The translations under genes were made by a program, and so were the position numbers. Positions 1,258 through 9,942 of a stretch of DNA of 9,942 nt are shown here, in pieces. The notes below the pieces were generated by a model. The model worked only from the letters and a program-made list of their open reading frames with translations, did no database searches and was not told the DNA's origin. Location of the stretch: the NCBI GenBank assembly GCA_029857975.1, contig JAOUFX010000055.1, forward strand, positions 1-9,942. Direction: 5' to 3'. This stretch comes from Deltaproteobacteria bacterium (GTDB taxonomy: Bacteria > Desulfobacterota > SM23-61). The first letter of the stretch is position 1. The number at the start of each line of letters is the position of its first letter.

Positions 1258-2307
1258 TCACCCCGTGCGAATCGGCTGCAGGCTGAGGGTATCGGCAAAA
1301 TGACAGGACACAAAGTGTTCATTTCCCAAGTCACGGTAGAGAGGTGATTCAACCCCGCAGATCTTTTCAGCATACCGACAGCGGGCGTGAAAATAGCAGC
1401 CGGAAGGAGGATTCATGGGGCTCGGCACATCCCCCTCGAGGATAATCTGTTGGGCTTTGTAATCGGGGTCCGGGACCGGAACCGCCGACATCAAGGCCTC
1501 GGTGTAGGGGTGCTTGGGATTCAAGAAGAGAGCTTCGGTTGCGGCAACCTCAACGATCTTTCCCAAATACATCACGGCCACTCGATCGCTGATGTATTTT
1601 ATAACCGAGAGATCGTGGGCGATAAACAGATACGTCAAACCGAACTGTTCCTGAAGGTCCTGCAGGAGGTTTACCACCTGGGCCTGGATGGAGACGTCCA
1701 AGGCAGAGATCGGCTCATCGGCCACGATCAACTCCGGCTCGAGTGCGAGCGCTCGGGCGATTCCGATGCGTTGGCGCTGCCCGCCGGAAAATTGGTGCGG
1801 ATACCGTTTCATCTGCTCCGGGTTCAACCCGACCGCCGCCAGCAATTTTTGAATCCTATCCTCCCGTTCACTCCCCTTGGCGATTCCGTGCACCTGCAAC
1901 GGCTCACCGACAATGTCCGCCACCGTCATCCGGGGGTCGAGGGAGGAATACGGGTCCTGAAAGATAATCTGCAGATCGCGACGAAGGAACTTGAGCAGGT
2001 TCGGCGGGGCGGCAGCAATATCAACTTCTTTACAGGATTCGCCGGAGCCGGAGAGCTTTTTACTGCGGAAAAGGACCTCACCGCCGGTAGGTTCGATCAG
2101 GCGCAGGATGGCGCGGCCGGCGGTAGTTTTTCCGCATCCGCTCTCACCGACAAGGCCAAGGGTTTCCCCCTCCTTTATGTATAAATCAATATCGTCGACC
2201 GCCTTGATATATCCGGCTGAACGCATAAAAATGCCTTTGCGCACCGGGAAATATTTCTTTAGGTGCCGCACCTCCAGCAAGATGGGTTCAACCGCTTCCA
2301 CCGCCAT
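1258..2307 (-). CDS. Peptide/opine/nickel-type ABC transporter ATP-binding protein, DppF/OppF family
   Basis: One of the two cytoplasmic ATPases that drive the import channel. The 349-residue protein has Walker A GESGCGKT (54-61), Q-loop Q117 in [11 protein letters not shown], signature FSGGQ (173-177), Walker B LIVADEP (193-199), D-loop SALD (201-204) and switch histidine H231. The C-terminal oligopeptide-transporter domain (about 250-335) carries cysteines 304, 310, 317 and 335, a spacing that in some Opp/Dpp ATPases binds an iron-sulfur cluster. The segment before the Q-loop (about 82-107) looks slightly longer than usual. The ATG at 2307 lies 3 bases after the stop of ATPase D and its ribosome site (GAAGGA) overlaps the end of that gene, so translation is probably coupled. 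Last gene of the operon. The substrate cannot be read from the ATPase. Confidence 0.95.
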
Positions 2308-2310
2308 TAT

Positions 2311-3309
2311 TTATCCTTCATTTTGCTCAGCATAGAGCCAGCAGGCTGCGTAGTGACCCGGAGAAACTTCGGTCAGCCGGGGAATTCGTCTTTTACAAAT
2401 GGCCATTGTCTGCGGACAGCGAGGTTCGAATCCGCAGCCTTCTTCCACATCCAAAAGGCCCGGTACAACCCCTTTGATGGGCACCAGGCGTCTTTCTTTT
2501 GTTGCCGCGAGCGATGGGATTGAATTCATCAATCCCCTGGTGTAAGGATGGCTGGGGTTATGAAAAATGTCCCTTACGGGAGCACTCTCAACAATTCTGC
2601 CCAGATACATCACAACCACATCATCGGCCATATGGGCGATTACCCCAAGGTTGTGGGTAATAAACATGATGGCGGTTTTAAAATCCCGGCGCAGATCGTT
2701 CATGATCTTCAATACCTGGGCCTGGATGGTAACATCCAGCGCGGTTGTCGGCTCATCGGCGATCAGCAGCGAAGGATTGCACGAAAGCGCCATGGCGATC
2801 ATGGCCCGCTGGCGCATGCCACCCGAAAGCTGGTGAGGATATTCCCGAATCCGCTGCTCGGCAGAAGGTATGCCGACCGCCGTGAGAAGTTCGATGGCCT
2901 TGGTTTTTGCCTCTCTCCTTCCCAAACGCTGATGGAGGATAATGGTTTCCATGATCTGGTTGCCGATCGTAAAAAGGGGGTTCAAAGAGGTCATGGGCTC
3001 TTGGAAAATCATGGCCACTTCGTTCCCTCGAATCGAGCGTATTTCAGGACCCTTGGGATCAAGCTTGGCCAGATCAACGACTTTTCCGTTCCTATGAAAA
3101 AGAATTTCTCCAGCATCCACTTTTCCCGGCGGCCGGATCAGCCCCAGGATCGACAGCGCCGTCACCGACTTGCCGCACCCGCTTTCTCCTACGACTCCCA
3201 GTGTTTTTTCCCGTTCAATGGTGAAATCAACGCCGTTGACAGCGTGCAACACACCGGCATCTGTATAAAAGTTGGTCTTAAGCCCTTTTACTTCGATCAA
3301 CCGCGCCAC
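2311..3309 (-). CDS. Peptide/opine/nickel-type ABC transporter ATP-binding protein, DppD/OppD family
   Basis: The partner ATPase of the import complex, 332 residues, cytoplasmic face of the membrane. Walker A GESGCGKS (41-48), Q-loop Q103 in IFQEPMTSLNP, signature LSGGM (161-165), Walker B LLIADEP (181-187) and switch H219 are all intact. The LSGGM signature and IFQEPMTSLNP are typical of the D-type rather than the F-type subunit. The C-terminal domain has cysteines 292, 298, 305 and 323, a possible 4Fe-4S site as in ATPase F. The start is GTG at 3309, chosen because a GGAGGG ribosome site (3321-3316) sits 6 bases upstream and MARLIEVKGLKT matches family starts. Unlike the other joints of the operon, a 185-base gap separates it from the upstream lyase. 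Confidence 0.95.
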   Translation of the reverse strand: MARLIEVKGLKTNFYTDAGVLHAVNGVDFTIEREKTLGVVGESGCGKSVTALSILGLIRPPGKVDAGEILFHRNGKVVDLAKLDPKGPEIRSIRGNEVAMIFQEPMTSLNPLFTIGNQIMETIILHQRLGRREAKTKAIELLTAVGIPSAEQRIREYPHQLSGGMRQRAMIAMALSCNPSLLIADEPTTALDVTIQAQVLKIMNDLRRDFKTAIMFITHNLGVIAHMADDVVVMYLGRIVESAPVRDIFHNPSHPYTRGLMNSIPSLAATKERRLVPIKGVVPGLLDVEEGCGFEPRCPQTMAICKRRIPRLTEVSPGHYAACWLYAEQNEG

Positions 3310-3494
3310 GGTTGGCCCTCCGCGCTTTCCCCCGCAATAAAAACGCCCATGATTATTTGCCGAATTCGCTTGCGCTTAACGCCTAACCCGCACAAAGCCG
3401 AAGCCAAAAAGCCTTATTGAAAAATCCGCAACCCGCATATCGAAATTCGAAACGAACATTAAAAAATACGTCGCTTTATTTTCGCATAAAAGCC
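3310..3494 (-). repeat. Low-complexity repeat-like spacer between lyase and ATPase D
   Basis: A 185-base non-coding stretch within an otherwise compact operon. The plus strand reads as strings of related short words (ATCCGCAACCCGC, TCGAAATTCGAAAC, TTAACGCCTAACCC), the style of degenerate dispersed intergenic repeats I recall from environmental proteobacterial genomes. Close to the lyase stop, a minus-strand hairpin (GCTTT/AAAGC, 3473-3493) is followed six bases later by six U (3466-3461), a weak terminator shape. Nearer ATPase D, TTAAGC-16-AATAAT is a possible but poor promoter. Neither signal is strong; both allow the D and F genes to be expressed differently from the upstream genes. Confidence 0.45.
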
Positions 3495-5030
3495 CTAAGC
3501 TGCAGCTTTCGCAATTTCTTTGGCAACCCGACGCAATTTTTCATAAGACTCATTCGTTTTCGTTTCCATATTTTTAATCCAGGTCGATTCCCGCTTCAAC
3601 CGAACCTTTCGATCCTCGGCCATCCGTTCCACCTCATTGGGATGGGTGCATCCAGGAGTCGACCGGGTTTGAATGAAGTGCTTGGGATCTAAGACCATTC
3701 TGATTTCTACAGTGGAGATGTCGAGCTTTAAGTTTCCCCCTAAGATCTCTTTTACAGCTCCCTCCAGCATCTGTTTTGTCGCCTGCGCCGGCGTTAATTC
3801 TTGATCCAGCGCATTCCTTACCATTCTGCCCACAATTCTGTGAGCCGTCCGCCACGAGAGGCTTGTTTTATGGGTAATCAACTCGGCCAAAGCACTGGCA
3901 GCTGACCAATTCGTCTTGGCGTTTTCCTCCATCCTGCCTTTACGGATGCTCATAGTGGCCACCACCGCTTCCATCAGTTCAGCCATGTCAACAAGCATCC
4001 GAAACGCATCCAAGTTGAAATCCGGCGTAAATTCGATGATATCAACTTCCTCCGAGTTCGTCTTCAGAACACCGAGCAGCGCCGGAAGCAGCCCGATAAA
4101 GTAACCGCTGCAGGCTCGAACCGCTTCCAGAGGAAGCGGGTTTTTCTTTTGCGGCATAAAGCTGCTGGTGCCGGAAAAGGCATCAGCCAGCTCAATCATA
4201 TTGAACTCCCGGGTACAGAATATATCGAGGTCGGTGGCCAGCTGACCTAAATTGGACATAAAAATGGCACAGCCGCTGCAGCTTTCCAAGGCATAATCTC
4301 TGGAGAAGCAAGCTTCACGTGCATTTTCTATGAACCCTCCAAACCCTAACAGTTCAGCGGTTCGTTGGCGGTTTAAAGGCAGGGATTCCCCTGCCGCTGC
4401 CGCTGCGCCCAAGGGGCTTAGGTTTGTCCGTAAGAACGCCCGCTGCAACCGATCCATATCGTTAAAAAACGCATCGGCAAACGCCAGCAGGTAATGTCCG
4501 AAGGTACAAGGCTGGGACTGTTGCAGGTGGGAATAGGCGGGCATAATCGTGCGGCTGTGCTCCGATGCCCTGGCCAGCAAGGTTTCGATGAGGACCTGGA
4601 TGGCTCTCATCGCTTTGAGGAGCTGGTCTCTTACATACACCCGTCGAATCGCAGCTTCGTAATCGAGCCGGCTTCTTCCGATATAGGCACTTCCCCCCAC
4701 TGCTTCGCCAAGCCGCATCAGGAGAAAGTGTTCCAGGTTCAGATAGATATTTCCCCTCTCTTTCTCCAAGGGAAACGTTGCGCTTCCCATGCTGTCTGCC
4801 TCCAGCATGGCCTGGAGAATCTTTGCCCCGGTGTCTTGATCAATGATCTTTCCCTCGGTCAGCATTACAAGATGGGCCAGATTAACAAGCGTACATGCAT
4901 AAAAGAGCGGTTTGGTCCGATCGATAATCGGCCCGTAGTAGGTTCTGGTAAATATTGCCGATGGTTCCTCCTGGAAGCGAGAATAGGCGCCCAGGTGTTG
5001 CCAAGATTTCACAGATTCCTTCTCGCTCAT
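3495..5030 (-). CDS. Argininosuccinate-lyase-like C-N lyase (aspartase/fumarase superfamily), divergent paralogue
   Basis: A 511-residue cytoplasmic lyase expected to split a C-N bond by elimination, typically releasing fumarate. Superfamily landmarks in order: GRSRLD (118-123), YSHLQQSQP (166-174) with the family histidine at 168, LSPLGAAAAAG (204-214), and the signature loop GTSSFMPQKKNP (287-298) with the catalytic-serine position at 289/290. A family-like C-terminal segment LDPKHFIQTRSTPG lies at 447-460. Compared with ArgH, the Asn of GRSRND is Leu122, and the region that should hold the arginine-binding YNKDxQEDK motif (about 322-340) is unrelated. A tail of about 35 basic, helix-prone residues makes it longer than the usual 450-470. 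ATG at 5030 has a G-rich ribosome site and lies 14 bases after permease C. Probably acts on the imported solute rather than in arginine synthesis; relatives with other substrates include EDDS lyase. Confidence 0.85.
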   Translation of the reverse strand: MSEKESVKSWQHLGAYSRFQEEPSAIFTRTYYGPIIDRTKPLFYACTLVNLAHLVMLTEGKIIDQDTGAKILQAMLEADSMGSATFPLEKERGNIYLNLEHFLLMRLGEAVGGSAYIGRSRLDYEAAIRRVYVRDQLLKAMRAIQVLIETLLARASEHSRTIMPAYSHLQQSQPCTFGHYLLAFADAFFNDMDRLQRAFLRTNLSPLGAAAAAGESLPLNRQRTAELLGFGGFIENAREACFSRDYALESCSGCAIFMSNLGQLATDLDIFCTREFNMIELADAFSGTSSFMPQKKNPLPLEAVRACSGYFIGLLPALLGVLKTNSEEVDIIEFTPDFNLDAFRMLVDMAELMEAVVATMSIRKGRMEENAKTNWSAASALAELITHKTSLSWRTAHRIVGRMVRNALDQELTPAQATKQMLEGAVKEILGGNLKLDISTVEIRMVLDPKHFIQTRSTPGCTHPNEVERMAEDRKVRLKRESTWIKNMETKTNESYEKLRRVAKEIAKAAA

Positions 5031-5044
5031 CCCTCACCCCCAGA

Positions 5045-5878
5045 TTACGTAAGACGCCCCCGGAGCTTTGGATCAAGCACATCCCGTATTCCGTCCCCCA
5101 GCATGTTGAACCCGATGACGGCAAGGAATATCCCTGCCCCGGGGATCAGCGAGAGCCAGGGGGCGTGCATGAAATAGAGCATTCCCTCCCGGATCATGTT
5201 GCCCCAGCTTGGTGTCGGCGGTTGCGTTCCCAGCCCGAGAAAACTAAGACTCGCCTCCAGCCTTATGGCGGTGGCAATCCAAAGGGTCGACATCACGATA
5301 ATGTCACCGGCAATGTTCGGGAAAATATGCTTCCGGATGATTCCGAAACTGGGCTGCCCCGTCGCGCGGCTGGCTTCGATGAAAACCTGCTCGGAGACGG
5401 AAAGGGTGGAAGCCCGGGCCAGGCGGATGAAGCGGGGGGTAAACGCAAGCCCGATGGCCAGGATAACGTTTTGGGTCCCCGGACCGAAGGCGACCACAAC
5501 GATAATGGCCAGCACCATGGTCGGAAAGGACATAAAAACATCCGTCAGCCAAACAATCCCAATGCCCACCCAGCCTTTGTTATACCCGGCGATCAGGCCC
5601 AGGATCGTGCCCAGCATGGCCCCCAGAAAAGTGGCGGCAAACCCAACGGACAATGAAATCCTTGATCCGTATATCGTCCGGGAAAAAATATCTCTTCCAT
5701 ATCCATCTGTTCCGCCGAAATATTCCCAGCTTGGCTTGACAAAGCGCTTGATGATATTCTGTTTCAGCGGATCCTGGGTCGCAATATAGGGCGAGAATAC
5801 GGCTAACAAGAGCGCGACAATCACCAATATAAAACCGAGAAAAGAAACCTTATTTTTTAAAAATCTTTTTAGCTCCAC
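5045..5878 (-). CDS. Peptide/opine/nickel-type ABC transporter permease, DppC/OppC family
   Basis: Inner-membrane channel subunit that pairs with permease B. From the GTG at 5878 it has 277 residues. It opens with a short basic stretch and a first membrane segment (about 11-31), then the conserved GTDGYGRDIFSR (56-67), several more hydrophobic segments (about 76-98, 108-130, 134-150, 190-210, 240-260), and the EAA coupling loop EASRATG...IIRKHIFPN (168-188) that docks on an ATPase. FLGLGTQPPTPSWGNMI near 213-229 is typical of DppC-type subunits. An in-frame TTG at 5902 would add eight residues but has no ribosome site, whereas the GTG has GGAAGGG 10 bases upstream. It lies 33 bases after permease B by this start, or 9 bases by the TTG. 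Confidence 0.94.
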   Translation of the reverse strand: MELKRFLKNKVSFLGFILVIVALLLAVFSPYIATQDPLKQNIIKRFVKPSWEYFGGTDGYGRDIFSRTIYGSRISLSVGFAATFLGAMLGTILGLIAGYNKGWVGIGIVWLTDVFMSFPTMVLAIIVVVAFGPGTQNVILAIGLAFTPRFIRLARASTLSVSEQVFIEASRATGQPSFGIIRKHIFPNIAGDIIVMSTLWIATAIRLEASLSFLGLGTQPPTPSWGNMIREGMLYFMHAPWLSLIPGAGIFLAVIGFNMLGDGIRDVLDPKLRGRLT

Positions 5879-5888
5879 GCCGTGAAGA

Positions 5889-5895
5889 CCCTTCC
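5889..5895 (-). promoter_or_regulatory. Ribosome binding site deciding the permease C start
   Basis: Minus-strand GGAAGGG lies 10 bases upstream of the GTG at 5878-5876. The alternative TTG start at 5902 is preceded by ACCGTCAAAG, with no Shine-Dalgarno match. This favours the shorter protein. Confidence 0.5.
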
Positions 5896-5911
5896 TTGGC
5901 AACTTTGACGG

Positions 5912-6853
5912 TTAGTCATATTTGATTCGAGGATCGATAAAGGCGTAAGACAAATCCGTAATAAGGTTCACCAGCATAATAAAAACCGTAAGCACCACCA
6001 GGCCCGATTGGATCACCGGGTAATTCCGTTCCTGGATGGCCCCGATTAAAAACTTGCCCAGGCCGGGCCGATTAAAAACGATCTCGACCTCTATAGACCC
6101 CCCGATGGTTACCGCCATATAGACCGAGATCATCGTAACCACCGGAATTAAAGAGTTTCTCAGGGCGTGCTTGTAAATAACCACCCATTCCTTAAGCCCT
6201 TTGCTCCTGGCGGTGGTGATATAATCTTCATGCAAAACATTCAGCATGGAGGATCGGGTCAAGCGCATGACAAAAGCCGATTTTATCAGCCCGAGGCTGA
6301 GTGCAGGCAAAAACAGATGGCGGGCGCGTTCCACCCAATTGCTCAGCTCACCGCCGCCGATCATGGGAAACCACCCCAGCACGAGGGAAAAGATGAAAAG
6401 AAGAATAATGGACAAATAAAATGCTGGAAAGGAAAAACCAAAAATCCCCAAAAATCTTCCGACAAAATCCAGTGGAGTGTTCCATTTCAGGGCCGCCAGG
6501 ATTCCGGCCGGCACCCCGATCAAAATCCCGATAACCGTCGCCCATATGGCCAGGTCGACGGTATACGGAACCGCTCGTCTAAACAACTCGGATACGGGTT
6601 GATCGGTGCGCAGATCTCGCCCCAAGTCTCCCCGGGTCAGATCCCATAAAAATGAGGTATACTGCTTCCAGAGCGGCTGGTTGAGACCCAGTCTCTCCCG
6701 GAGCACCTCAAGGGCTTCGGGGTTTGCCCGGTCTCCGAGAATTGCCATCGCCGGATCCCCGCCGAGCCCCCGGACGGCAAAAAAAACGACGGTGATGACA
6801 ACCAGAATGGTGGGTATTGCCAGCAGAAGCCTGCGAATGATGAAGGTAGTCAT
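5912..6853 (-). CDS. Peptide/opine/nickel-type ABC transporter permease, DppB/OppB family
   Basis: Inner-membrane channel subunit, 313 residues. The start MTTFIIRRLLLAIPT, first membrane segment (about 7-28), periplasmic-side GDPA (32-35), GDLGRD (75-80), and further membrane segments near 99-121, 133-160, 179-195, 236-256 and 281-303 follow the family plan. The EAA loop DYITTARSKG...YKHALRNSLIP (210-237) should contact an ATPase. The C-terminal DLSYAFIDPRIKYD is characteristic of DppB-type subunits. The ATG at 6853 is supported by family comparison, but no Shine-Dalgarno is visible: the bases before it are a U-tract following a strong hairpin. Translation may therefore depend on leaderless-like initiation, processing, or re-initiation. 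Confidence 0.95.
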   Translation of the reverse strand: MTTFIIRRLLLAIPTILVVITVVFFAVRGLGGDPAMAILGDRANPEALEVLRERLGLNQPLWKQYTSFLWDLTRGDLGRDLRTDQPVSELFRRAVPYTVDLAIWATVIGILIGVPAGILAALKWNTPLDFVGRFLGIFGFSFPAFYLSIILLFIFSLVLGWFPMIGGGELSNWVERARHLFLPALSLGLIKSAFVMRLTRSSMLNVLHEDYITTARSKGLKEWVVIYKHALRNSLIPVVTMISVYMAVTIGGSIEVEIVFNRPGLGKFLIGAIQERNYPVIQSGLVVLTVFIMLVNLITDLSYAFIDPRIKYD

Positions 6854-6922: not shown

Positions 6923-8551
6923 TCAGTGCTTCAGAATTCGCGCCTTTTCCAGCGGATACCCGAAAATCATCGAACCTTTAATCTCAACGCCGGGGTCAAA
7001 CCAGTTGTGCCGGACCAGCACTTTGGTCAGCTCATGGAGCGGCTTGGCCGGCATGTCTTTCAGAATCTCCAGTTGCGCCTCATAGTAAAGCTGCCTCTGT
7101 TTCTCTCGATTCATTTCGCCGCGGGCCGCGATGATAAGGGAGTCGACACTGTCGACTTTGCCGTCGCCATCCGCGTCCACATCGCCGTAATGGGAGAAAT
7201 TCGTGACCGCCGTGGGCTTGCCGATAACGGCCTTGGAGAAATAATACTGGGTAAGATAAGAGTCTGCCACCGGCGCCCGGCCCGCATAATAGACGACTAC
7301 ATCGTTCATGTCTTTGCGGATATTGGCGTGAAACGTAGTATGATCAACCCCTTTGATTTCAAGCTGAACTCCGAGCGGTTTCCATAGTTCCTGGCAAATC
7401 TCCATGATGGACTTGTAGTAGGGTTTGTCGGTGATATATCCCATTAATTTAAACCCTTTGGGGTAGCCAGCCTCCGCCAGCAGCTTTTTCGCTTTTTCCA
7501 AGTCGTACTCGTATAGAAGTTCTTTGGGCGTCTTCTCCTTGGGCAAAGCGGCGTAGTAAGAAGGGGGTACCGGAGCGGTCATCTCGTGCCAGACGGCGCC
7601 GAAATACTGTTTAAACGCTTTCCGGTCGGTCGCTATGGCCAGGGCTTTTCTGACTTTGATGTTATCAAGGGGTTTTTTGGTCATGTTAAAGTGAATGGCA
7701 CAGCCGCTGCCCAGCGGCACGGAATCCACAATAACCGTTTTGGTCTTCTTTACATCTTCAACCCAGTAGGTATCCCGCTCCCCGTAAATGGCATCCAGGT
7801 CCCCCTTGATAAAGGCCATGGTTCTGGAAGCCACATTGGGCATAAAAAACATCTCCAGCCGCTCTATCGTCGGCGCTCCCCTGAAATAATTCGGGTTTCT
7901 GACAAAGGTTATTTTCTCTTTTGCTTTATAATTCTCAACCATAAAGGGGCCGGTGCCGATGACGTACAGCCCGAGATTCTTCAAGCCCTTCTCCTCTCCC
8001 TGCTTTTTGCACACGATCATACCGGCCTGATAGGCAAAGGCCTGATTCATGATGAAAAAGGTATTGGGTTTTTTGAGAATGATTTGAACCGTGTATTTGT
8101 CGACGACCTTAACACTGTCAATGGCGAGAAACTTCGCGCCATAGGGGGAACCCAGTTTGGGATTTTTCAGGCGATCAAAGGTGTATTTAACATCCTCGGC
8201 GGTAAATTCCCCGTACCCTTTATGCCATTGGACCCCTTTTCTGAGGCGGAAGGTGTAAACCAAGCCGTCCTTGGAGATCTCCCAGGATTCGGCCAGATCC
8301 CCTTCGAGGTTGTCAAAGTCAAGCGTTCCGGGCCTCACGCGAACCAGGCCGTTGAAAACCCCGTTGCCGGCCGAATAGGTCATGTCCTCAACGGAAAAAG
8401 CCGGATCCAGCGAGGTAAGATCCGAAGTGTGGTGCCCCCACCGCCAAACCTGCTTATCTGCCAGTTCCTGTGAGGCCGCAAAAATAAGCCCCGGGGCCAG
8501 GCAAAGGATCACTGCCAAAAAGCCGATCAAGTAACCAAGACGATGTCTCAT
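6923..8551 (-). CDS. Periplasmic solute-binding protein, family 5 (peptide/opine/nickel), with EF-hand-like loop
   Basis: The solute receptor of the importer, 542 residues, usual length for family 5. Residues 1-26 form a signal peptide (MRHR, hydrophobic core, cleavage near IFA-AS); C17 lacks a proper lipobox, so a soluble periplasmic protein is likely. Family landmarks: SLDPAFSVEDM (47-57), LAESWEISKDGLVYTFRLR (87-105), WHKGYGEFTAEDVKYTFDRL (109-128), GTGPFMVENY (199-208), RNPNYFRG (218-225) and VRKALAIATDR (300-310). Residues 459-470 (DADGDGKVDSVD) match a 12-residue EF-hand calcium loop, with Asp at positions 1, 3, 5, 9 and 12 and Gly at 6. The ATG at 8551 is chosen for its GGAGGT site 6 bases upstream; an in-frame GTG at 8596 would bury the signal peptide. 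First gene of the operon, with its own promoter. Confidence 0.95.
   Translation of the reverse strand: MRHRLGYLIGFLAVILCLAPGLIFAASQELADKQVWRWGHHTSDLTSLDPAFSVEDMTYSAGNGVFNGLVRVRPGTLDFDNLEGDLAESWEISKDGLVYTFRLRKGVQWHKGYGEFTAEDVKYTFDRLKNPKLGSPYGAKFLAIDSVKVVDKYTVQIILKKPNTFFIMNQAFAYQAGMIVCKKQGEEKGLKNLGLYVIGTGPFMVENYKAKEKITFVRNPNYFRGAPTIERLEMFFMPNVASRTMAFIKGDLDAIYGERDTYWVEDVKKTKTVIVDSVPLGSGCAIHFNMTKKPLDNIKVRKALAIATDRKAFKQYFGAVWHEMTAPVPPSYYAALPKEKTPKELLYEYDLEKAKKLLAEAGYPKGFKLMGYITDKPYYKSIMEICQELWKPLGVQLEIKGVDHTTFHANIRKDMNDVVVYYAGRAPVADSYLTQYYFSKAVIGKPTAVTNFSHYGDVDADGDGKVDSVDSLIIAARGEMNREKQRQLYYEAQLEILKDMPAKPLHELTKVLVRHNWFDPGVEIKGSMIFGYPLEKARILKH
7142..7177 (-). other. EF-hand-like calcium-binding loop within the binding protein
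   Basis: These 36 bases encode residues 459-470 of the binding protein. Canonical loop positions 1, 3, 5, 9 and 12 are Asp, position 6 is Gly and position 8 is Val, satisfying the classic pattern. It sits between NFSHYG and the conserved VDSLI..AR segment, where I recall family members having a shorter loop. Calcium binding is inferred, not shown. Confidence 0.7.
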
Positions 8552-8557
8552 GTTCGT

Positions 8558-8563
8558 ACCTCC
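8558..8563 (-). promoter_or_regulatory. Ribosome binding site of the binding protein, partly within an A/U hairpin
   Basis: Minus-strand GGAGGT lies 6 bases before the ATG at 8551-8549 and fixes that start. Immediately upstream CCTTTT (8577-8572) can pair with AAAAGG (8567-8562) across UAAA; the GG of that stem is part of the Shine-Dalgarno, so access could be modulated. The hairpin is weak. Confidence 0.6.
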
Positions 8564-8583
8564 TTTTTTTAAAAAGGTTACAA

Positions 8584-8616
8584 TTAGGGATTGCACTTCC
8601 GGGCTTTCACCTCCAT
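8584..8616 (-). CDS. Possible 10-residue leader peptide upstream of the binding protein
   Basis: In the 5' leader an ATG at 8616 opens MEVKARKCNP and stops at 8584, 33 bases before the binding-protein ATG. No ribosome site precedes it, but the leader contains a second GGAGGT (8614-8609) that could serve an internal GTG (8610, same frame) poorly or the in-frame GTG at 8596 at 12 bases. There is no run of one amino acid as in classic attenuation leaders. It may be chance. Confidence 0.15.
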   Translation of the reverse strand: MEVKARKCNP

Positions 8617-8633
8617 GTTACAGGGATCGAGCC

Positions 8634-8662
8634 ATTATACGGAATGAAGCCTATCAAAGCAA
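8634..8662 (-). promoter_or_regulatory. Sigma-70-type promoter of the transporter-lyase operon
   Basis: Minus-strand TTGCTT (8662-8657), a 17-base spacer, then a perfect TATAAT (8639-8634). The predicted start near 8627 gives a leader of about 75 bases to the binding-protein ATG, too short for most riboswitches. No clear operator dyad was seen next to it, and no regulator gene is in the window. Confidence 0.6.
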
Positions 8663-8708
8663 CACCAAACTTGCCACTTTCGGCCGCGCCCAATCCTGAC
8701 GGTCACGC

Positions 8709-8759
8709 AAAAAGTCTGGAAATAAGCCCTTCGGTCTTTCCGCGAAGGCCGGAATCCAG
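8709..8759 (-). terminator. Possible recO terminator built from a degenerate REP-like palindrome
   Basis: Just past the recO stop the minus strand has an outer arm pair CTGGA (8759-8755) and TCCAG (8720-8716), followed two bases later by five U (8713-8709). Inside are two mutually exclusive hairpins: TTCCG/CGGAA (8754-8750, 8742-8738) and a six-pair CCTTCG/CGAAGG (8748-8743, 8733-8728). The plus strand at 8733-8763 resembles the widespread repeat whose core is TTCCCGCGAA...GCGGGAATCCAG, here with decayed arms. It could end recO transcripts; the fold is not compact, so this is uncertain. The rest of 8664-8708 shows nothing recognisable. Confidence 0.4.
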
Positions 8760-8768
8760 TCTTTATTC

Positions 8769-9630: not shown

Positions 9631-9670
9631 CCGCAGGGTCTCGATGAAAAATTAAATTATTGCTCTGCGG
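9631..9670 (+). other. 5' leader hairpin of the plus-strand membrane protein
   Basis: CCGCAGGGT (9631-9639) pairs with GCTCTGCGG (9662-9670): nine pairs, two of them G-U, around a 22-base A/T-rich loop. It would form at or very near the 5' end of the predicted transcript. The loop contains a three-codon ATG AAA AAT TAA frame. It may stabilise the message or hold a protein; no known riboswitch was recognised. Confidence 0.35.
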
Positions 9671-9683
9671 CGAGAAACCTCCT

Positions 9684-9942
9684 ATGAACCTTCCTATTAT
9701 TTTTGCTCTGCTCGTCATGGGGTTTACCTTTACCATCACCCAAGTGATGGTCATCCGCGAACTCCTGGTGGTCTTTGCCGGGAATGAGCTCTCTATTGCC
9801 ATCATCCTGTCTAACTGGCTCCTGCTGGAGGCGGCTGGAAGTTACCTGATCGGCAGGAAGGTGCAAGAGTTCGGATGGGGCAGAAGTAGCTATGCCCTGG
9901 TACAAGTAGTTTTATCCCTTTTTCTGCCCATCACCATCTACG
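9684..9942 (+). CDS. Multi-spanning membrane protein, N-terminus of a spermidine-synthase-like fusion (cut by window edge)
   Basis: The first 86 residues of an inner-membrane protein. Hydrophobic segments lie near 4-24, 35-57 and 70-86. The stretch QVMVIRELLVVFAGNELS (20-37), with RELL and GNEL, followed by SNWLLLEAAGS (43-53), resembles the membrane domain that precedes a spermidine-synthase-type methyltransferase fold in proteins widespread in Desulfobacterota. The catalytic domain would lie beyond the window, so the activity is unconfirmed. The ATG at 9684 has no good ribosome site (GCGAGAAACCTCCT precedes it); an in-frame TTG at 9660 and a stop at 9645 bound the alternatives. Divergent from recO. 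Confidence 0.75.
   Translation, partial: MNLPIIFALLVMGFTFTITQVMVIRELLVVFAGNELSIAIILSNWLLLEAAGSYLIGRKVQEFGWGRSSYALVQVVLSLFLPITIY

What the first reader, a model, noticed from the sequence alone, without database searches (positions are those of the whole stretch)
3495..5030. Argininosuccinate-lyase-like enzyme embedded in a peptide/opine-type ABC importer operon
A C-N lyase gene lies between permease C and ATPase D, 14 bases after the former and co-directional with both. Import and intracellular cleavage of one compound is the simplest reading. A known parallel, from memory, is degradation of aminopolycarboxylates: EDDS lyase is an ArgH-type enzyme, and EDTA uptake in the same bacterium uses a peptide-type ABC importer. 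The solute here may be an N-substituted aspartate, an N-succinated amino acid or a metallophore-like compound; this is inference.
Basis: partly seen in the sequence, partly recalled or inferred. Interest (0 to 1): 0.75.

Follow-up and report, generated by a model that had tools for sequence, protein, structure and literature searches.

The report
Importer operon with misnamed carbon-nitrogen lyase
A bacterium carries a complete nutrient importer, related to those that take up crown-gall opines, with a built-in enzyme that is labelled arginine-making but lacks the usual arginine-side motif and most likely splits the imported compound into fumarate and an amine.

Summary
In detail: a 511-aa lyase (3495-5030, minus) starts 14 bases after permease C inside a complete peptide-type ABC importer between recO and glyQ. 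NCBI's argH model would name it argininosuccinate lyase, but 19 of 19 close relatives examined, itself included, lack the ArgH motif YNxDxQ, and two related genomes carry a separate ArgH. A 70% lyase has the same place in another MAG. G001 keeps the operon at about 96% identity but lost the lyase, leaving its first codons, and the SBP 5' end; G006 lacks the lyase and has a broken ATPase. The SBP's nearest characterised relatives are MoaA (mannopinic acid) and SacA (succinamopine), as a sister branch. EDDS lyase is only a cousin. Of hand-picked ArgH paralogues, those without the motif have an adjacent transporter gene in 14 of 22 loci, those with it in 0 of 7. Best reading: uptake of an opine-like N-substituted aspartate and cleavage to fumarate plus amine; solute unknown. 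New variant of a known kind.

The parts
6923..8596 (-). Solute-binding protein, SBP_bac_5; nearest characterised relatives MoaA and SacA (opine binders)
   Evidence: Pfam PF00496 E 1.7e-82; best solved sequence 6tfq (MoaA with mannopinic acid) 285 bits, next 169; in one group with SacA and MoaA at 99/98, as a sister branch
5912..6853 (-). Permease B (BPD_transp_1)
   Evidence: Pfam PF00528 E 5.2e-40
5045..5902 (-). Permease C (BPD_transp_1, OppC_N); TTG start as listed, a start further in is possible
   Evidence: Pfam PF00528 E 2.1e-27
3495..5030 (-). ArgH-superfamily C-N lyase paralogue (the finding)
   Evidence: PF00206 1.8e-37, PF14698 3.5e-8; TIGR00838 314 bits over cut-off 279.5; model pLDDT 90.9; own clade in tree
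2311..3309 (-). ATPase D (ABC_tran + oligo_HPY)
   Evidence: Pfam; GTG start
1258..2307 (-). ATPase F (ABC_tran + oligo_HPY)
   Evidence: Pfam
3310..3494 (-). 185-base gap between lyase stop and ATPase D; its D-proximal part (3310-3383) is shared with G001, the rest is not
3384..5013 (-). Stretch absent from the nearest genome G001 (lyase body plus part of the gap), where about 90 unrelated bases stand instead
8204..8692 (-). Stretch absent from G001: region before the SBP gene and its first about 130 codons

Best explanation
The operon imports an opine-like N-substituted aspartate (an N-(1,2-dicarboxyethyl)amine, i.e. an iminodiacid whose one half is aspartate) through a peptide-family ABC transporter whose binding protein is kin to MoaA and SacA. 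Inside the cell the ArgH-family lyase breaks the C-N bond by beta-elimination, giving fumarate and the free amine or amino acid. Fumarate enters the central cycle; the amine supplies nitrogen. Shown here by sequence: gene order, family membership, loss of the ArgH amine-side motif, conserved core positions, kinship of the binding protein, recurrence of the gene pair, and damage to the two operon copies seen without the lyase. Inferred: the reaction, its direction, and the class of solute.
For: (1) Same order permease C-lyase in L008 (Pseudomonadota MAG; lyase 70%, SBP 72%, permease B 84%, permease C 74%), beside a Hydantoinase_A gene instead of recO. (2) A 44% lyase (P0022), a 66% SBP (P0142) and a 70% permease C (P0277) each list a longest contig of 39,546 bp from the same source, so very probably one contig. 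(3) In G001 the lyase is replaced by a scar that keeps its start codon and the next few codons (one base differing), and the SBP gene has lost its 5' end; in G006 there is no lyase between C and D and ATPase D has a 62-base internal gap. Both lyase-less copies seen are thus damaged; the window's is whole, L008's is cut by the contig end. (4) Lyase: SRLD for SRND and SEEVDIIE in place of YNxDxQ in 19 of 19 relatives examined, while S289, K295, N297 (invariant) and S290, K296, R121 (at least 90%) are kept in an alignment of 46 ArgH-like proteins. (5) SBP: nearest solved relative MoaA (285 bits, next 169; named), and 38% to the pTiEU6 SBP gene whose position fits SacA, the succinamopine-binding protein of PMC6733357 (passages); 111 of 131 plasmid records with a relative at E <= 1e-60 are Agrobacterium or Rhizobium. 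(6) ArgH paralogues without the motif have an immediately adjacent transporter gene in 14 of 22 loci, those with it in 0 of 7 (Fisher p 0.006).
Confidence: 0.55

Rival explanations
1. It is a true argininosuccinate lyase that happens to lie in the operon, either housekeeping or serving uptake of argininosuccinate.
For: Passes the NCBI argH equivalog cut-off (314 against 279.5 bits); ArgH folds head the structure list.
Against: YN.D.Q in 0 of 19 relatives examined, SRND replaced in all 19. G001 and G396 carry another ArgH with these motifs, scoring higher (389.5 and 375.9 bits). The cut-off does not discriminate: 7 of 8 scanned proteins without the motif passed it. G001 lost the gene. The window's own assembly is not held.
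Confidence: 0.08
2. The lyase works in the C-N forming direction: it builds a chelator from an amine and fumarate, and the importer recovers the metal complex (metallophore cycle, as for nickel or staphylopine systems).
For: EDDS lyase is described as adding amines to fumarate (PMC12363623, passages); the best NCBIfam model for the SBP is nikA, though far below cut-off (152.9 against 393 bits); NikA binds chelated metal (PMC7312458, passages).
Against: No exporter, metal regulator or second biosynthetic gene recognised in the window. The SBP scores 285 bits to MoaA against at most 98.5 (NikZ, 4oet) to solved nickel-type SBPs in the 60 rows shown.
Confidence: 0.13
3. The neighbourhood is accidental: a dipeptide or opine importer with an unrelated lyase gene inserted.
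For: G006 keeps the transporter genes (85-93% identical) without the lyase; 0 of 8 class genomes have the lyase at 1e-60; in two overlapping phylum draws 1 of 395 and 2 of 395 genomes have a hit at 1e-70, one of them of this clade (G396).
Against: Same place in L008 with another neighbour upstream; contig-length match of P0022/P0142/P0277; the G001 scar shows loss, not gain; both lyase-less copies are damaged.
Confidence: 0.15
4. The lyase acts on something other than an N-substituted aspartate, for instance eliminating an oxygen or phosphate leaving group, or on a sugar conjugate.
For: The CoM-synthesis model XcbC scores nearly as high as argH (310.6 against 314.4 bits); other importer-linked loci carry sugar-type enzymes (SIS, PfkB, PIG-L).
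Against: The XcbC cut-off (575) is not reached; the XcbC-like protein L062 branches elsewhere; core positions are conserved.
Confidence: 0.12

Closest known systems
EDDS lyase of Chelativorans sp. BNC1 (6g3d, 6rx8 and others)
   Different: Not in its clade. Of the six substrate-near residues named in PMC12363623 (passages), R112 and N288 are kept; N113 is Leu, Q159 is His (as in ArgH), D290 is Leu; Y320 lies in a loop that cannot be aligned safely
EppABCD EDTA importer (PMC7312458, passages)
   Same: NikA/DppA/OppA-like binding protein and ABC importer for an aminopolycarboxylate
   Different: EppA (6wm6, 6wm7) is not among the 60 of 89 sequence matches shown for the SBP
Succinamopine system sacA-H of pTiEU6 (PMC6733357, passages; region read)
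   Same: SBP in the same wider group (38% identity), peptide-type permeases and ATPase, hydantoinase genes as beside L008
   Different: Its cluster has FAD dehydrogenase genes for opine cleavage and no lyase in the region read
MoaA, mannopinic-acid binding protein (6tfq)
   Different: MoaA sits with SacA in another branch; the window SBP has an extra EF-hand-like loop after NFSH (alignment)
Clusters with MmgE/PrpD, possibly for iminodisuccinate (plasmid loci L049, L056, L060, L063, L064)
   Same: ArgH paralogue in a run with an importer
   Different: Amino-acid-type ABC importer plus MmgE/PrpD; the L049 MmgE/PrpD matches IDS-epimerase best (206 bits); lyases in other branches

Membership tests
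Argininosuccinate lyase (ArgH) | Fumarase/aspartase superfamily fold with ArgH C-terminal domain | tested here: met
Argininosuccinate lyase (ArgH) | Amine-side motif Y(N/S)xDxQ (its role in holding the arginine half is recalled, not from a call) | tested here: not met
   YN.D.Q in 0 of 19 and SEEVDIIE in 19 of 19 relatives examined; Y(N/S)xDxQ is present in the ArgH of G001, G396 and Nitrospirae and in L047, L050, L057, L059
Argininosuccinate lyase (ArgH) | SRND signature | tested here: not met
   SRLD in 19 of 19; SRND in the seven rows with the Q motif. The D of KKNPD is less telling: the G396 ArgH has G, L059 has V
Argininosuccinate lyase (ArgH) | Catalyses argininosuccinate cleavage | not testable with these tools
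   no assay
EDDS lyase | Same clade as the Chelativorans enzyme | tested here: not met
   Tree of 47 rows: EDDS lyase with ArgH rows (84/67, not starred, long branch 1.51, partial sequence); window in another fork (96/97)
EDDS lyase | Substrate-near residues R112, N113, Q159, N288, D290, Y320 | tested here: not met
   2 of 6 kept, 3 differ, 1 not safely alignable
MoaA/SacA-type opine binding protein | Nearest to MoaA and SacA among characterised binding proteins | tested here: met
   285 bits to MoaA, next solved sequence 169; one group with SacA and MoaA at 99/98, few outgroups
MoaA/SacA-type opine binding protein | Inside the MoaA/SacA clade itself | tested here: not met
   SacA, MoaA, L072 and L073 form their own clade (100/100); the window is in a 16-row sister group (97/95)
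MoaA/SacA-type opine binding protein | Binds an opine | not testable with these tools
   no binding data
Peptide-type ABC importer (SBP5, two permeases, two ATPases) | All five components in one operon | tested here: met
   (co-transcription not tested)
Opine dehydrogenase pathway | FAD opine dehydrogenase genes beside the importer | tested here: not met
   none recognised in the window; present in pTiEU6

The most novel reading that the evidence does not exclude
A non-oxidative route of opine catabolism: a non-agrobacterial lineage takes up iminodiacid opines (for example succinopine-like or other N-(1,2-dicarboxyethyl) amino acids or polyamines) with an importer kin to SacA and MoaA and splits them with a dedicated ArgH-derived lyase to fumarate plus amine, in place of a flavin opine dehydrogenase. 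More widely, a large share of genes now labelled argininosuccinate lyase would be catabolic enzymes for N-succinated amines, each specialised to the importer next to it.
Probability: 0.3. Interest if true: 0.74.

Novelty: new variant of a known kind. Interest (0 to 1): 0.55.

Why it matters
If right, it gives a concrete, testable enzyme for the breakdown of N-succinated amines and joins opine-type uptake to a C-N lyase. It also shows that the standard argH model accepts likely catabolic paralogues as arginine biosynthesis (7 of 8 scanned proteins without the ArgH motif passed), so importer-linked 'argH' genes may be a source of new C-N lyases for making N-substituted aspartates, a use for which EDDS lyase has been engineered (PMC12363623, passages).

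Tried and rejected
EDDS/EDTA reading: the best solved match is EDDS lyase, but the tree does not place the window with it and residues differ; kept as analogy only. XcbC (CoM synthesis): close in score (310.6 bits) but under its cut-off and elsewhere in the tree. G033 (L067): a 44% SBP with permeases is followed by a different Lyase_1 enzyme (ADSL type) and preceded by MmgE/PrpD, which looked like independent support; but that lyase is nearest trans-aconitate decarboxylase (316 bits), the MmgE/PrpD is nearly as close to the B. subtilis IRG1 (cis-aconitate decarboxylase type) as to IDS-epimerase (121.6 against 133.4 bits), and tripartite tricarboxylate transporter genes lie near, so it may be an aconitate locus; not counted. 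G279 (L068): SBP 41-43%, no relative of the window lyase near. Promoter-like sites 8 found, 6.5 expected; terminator-like 8 found, 10.5 expected. No Rfam match at the gathering score. Repeats within the window are short and imperfect. Fold comparison of the SBP does not by itself single out MoaA.

Paper searches (titles and abstracts listed unless said): EDDS lyase with argininosuccinate lyase 0 papers; EDDS lyase 6, one read in passages; iminodisuccinate 6; paralogue/ABC terms 11 holding at least 4 of 5 terms, none on the subject by title; ArgH active-site terms 113, 15 listed; aspergillomarasmine terms 0; Chelativorans/EppA 9, one read in passages; MoaA and mannopinic acid 15 and 6, no structure paper of MoaA seen; succinamopine 72, 20 listed, two read in passages. 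That importer-linked ArgH paralogues are not surveyed in print is claimed only for in this library.

Contig lengths of the listed best 120 lyases, SBPs and permease C proteins were compared by eye: one match (39,546 bp) among the 22 closest lyase clusters; weak evidence either way, because each cluster shows only its longest contig.

Full report
What is there. The minus strand of the window carries a run SBP (8596-6923), permease B (6853-5912), permease C (5902-5045), ArgH-like lyase (5030-3495), ATPase D (3309-2311), ATPase F (2307-1258), between recO (9527-8769) and glyQ (1136-252). The space from the lyase to ATPase D is longer, 185 bases.

Where it belongs. A tree of 47 ArgH-like proteins puts the window with six of the closest hits and L008 (8 rows, 100/100), then P0022 (98/92) and P0028 (100/98), in one fork (96/97) with Roseibium, Cupriavidus, Microvirga and faecal-scaffold lyases. 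EDDS lyase lies with the ArgH rows (84/67, not well supported, long branch, partial sequence). So the EDDS resemblance looks like that of two ArgH paralogues, not of one subfamily. Six residues near the substrate in EDDS lyase are named in PMC12363623 (passages): R112 and N288 are kept; N113 is Leu, Q159 is His (as in ArgH), D290 is Leu; Y320 lies in a loop that cannot be aligned safely.

Is it tied to the importer? Four lines. First, L008, a MAG contig of a Pseudomonadota bacterium, has Hydantoinase_A, SBP (72%), permease B (84%), permease C (74%), then a 70% lyase; the contig ends inside the lyase, so the ATPases are not seen. Second, P0022 (lyase, 44%), P0142 (SBP, 66%) and P0277 (permease C, 70%) each list 39,546 bp as the longest contig from the same source. 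Third, G001 holds the operon at about 96% nucleotide identity between the same recO and glyQ, but window 3384-5013 is missing; about 90 unrelated bases stand there, next to a remnant that keeps the ATG and GAGAAGGAATC of the lyase start, so the lyase was lost, not gained. G001 also lacks window 8204-8692, the region before the SBP gene and its first about 130 codons. Its remaining operon genes show low dN/dS against the window (0.04-0.30), so decay would be recent. Fourth, G006 (another genus of the family) has the transporter with other genes on the SBP side (its other side is the contig end), only 91 bases between C and D, no lyase, and a 62-base out-of-frame gap in ATPase D. Both lyase-less copies are thus damaged; two cases only. 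Against: the lyase is rare. None of 8 class genomes has it at 1e-60; at 1e-70 it is in 1 of 23 genomes of the class of G396, that genome itself, and hits are in 1 of 395 and 2 of 395 (drawn round G396, overlapping groups), where the 34% hit of G200 and G609 (same place and score, evidently one genome) is not of this clade. Among 395 genomes the SBP at 1e-120 is in 4: G001, G006, and two at 43-44%.

Do relatives sit beside transporters? I read 26 loci out of 279 records with a lyase relative (256 plasmids at 1e-30; 23 phage-labelled at 1e-5): 12 of the 15 best plasmid rows (three near-duplicates skipped), 12 picked by hand for spread from a list of 60 rows, and two faecal 'phage' scaffolds. Unannotated ones were scanned in part. 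An immediately adjacent, same-strand transporter gene was found in 15 of 26; three more (L039, L049, L055) have an ABC importer in the same run, one gene between; 8 have none by this rule (L042, L044, L047, L050, L053, L057, L059, L062), though L042 has a TauE/SafE exporter on the other strand and L047 an ABC ATPase about 1 kb upstream. Types among the 18: peptide ABC 4 (L040, L043, L045, L051), amino-acid ABC 6, sugar or PotA-type ABC 4, tripartite receptor 2, single carriers 2 (one of them a Na+/H+ antiporter family protein, which need not be an importer). Split by the Q of the motif, rows lacking it have an adjacent transporter in 14 of 22 (L046, a split gene, was not classed; L033 of G200 included, neighbours by eye; L052 motif judged by eye), rows with it in 0 of 7 (L047, L050, L057, L059 and the ArgH of G001, G396 and L009; the G396 contig is short, L009 by eye; a cobalt-type importer run starts about 1.7 kb after the G001 gene, by eye); Fisher p 0.006. 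Rows are related (L047 and L050 nearly the same) and hand-picked, so this is a pointer, not a rate.

Mechanism. The SBP catches an opine-like iminodiacid, the ABC importer brings it in, and the lyase removes the amine from its aspartate half as fumarate. The class of solute follows from lyase chemistry (established for the superfamily, recalled) and SBP kinship; the actual solute is unknown. The acidic loop in place of the ArgH motif speaks for a cationic amine half, and against plain succinopine. The importer is shown by sequence; the reaction and its direction are inferred.

Verdict. It is a new variant of the known importer-plus-C-N-lyase kind. On rechecking I lowered the main odds from 0.58 to 0.55 and the novel case from 0.33 to 0.30, because the SBP is a sister of the MoaA/SacA clade, not a member of it.

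Noticed in passing
window 7142-7177 (minus), SBP residues 474-485: A 12-residue EF-hand-like calcium loop (D.D.DG..D..D) directly after the conserved NFSH motif; D.D.DG..D is found in 26 of 42 aligned SBPs and is a gap in MoaA (alignment).
   Followed up: partly
window 8693-8764: A dispersed repeat, also on other contigs of G001 (C178, C203, C20), lies at the breakpoint of the SBP 5' loss in G001.
   Followed up: no
L049, L055: Asparaginase, amino-acid ABC importer, ArgH paralogue and SIS protein in one run, in L049 also MmgE/PrpD and a PfkB kinase: resembles a fructose-asparagine type locus (recalled) with a lyase; possible cleavage of sugar-aspartate conjugates.
   Followed up: no
L058, L061: ArgH paralogue with sugar-type ABC importer and a PIG-L deacetylase near, in L058 also a sugar kinase.
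   Followed up: no
L056, L060, L063, L064: ArgH-like lyases with YNRD kept but the Q replaced by A or S, beside an amino-acid ABC importer and MmgE/PrpD; candidates for iminodisuccinate use.
   Followed up: partly
L067 5414-6772 and 10607-12076: In G033 a relative of the transporter is flanked by an ADSL-type lyase and an MmgE/PrpD protein; substrate class unclear (aconitate or aminopolycarboxylate).
   Followed up: partly
TIGR00838 scan: The argH equivalog cut-off is passed by 7 of 8 scanned proteins that lack the ArgH motif: an annotation trap.
   Followed up: partly
window 9660-9942 (+): Start of a membrane protein gene cut by the window end (MNLPIIFALLVMGFTFT...), possibly spermidine-synthase-like (by eye).
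   Followed up: no
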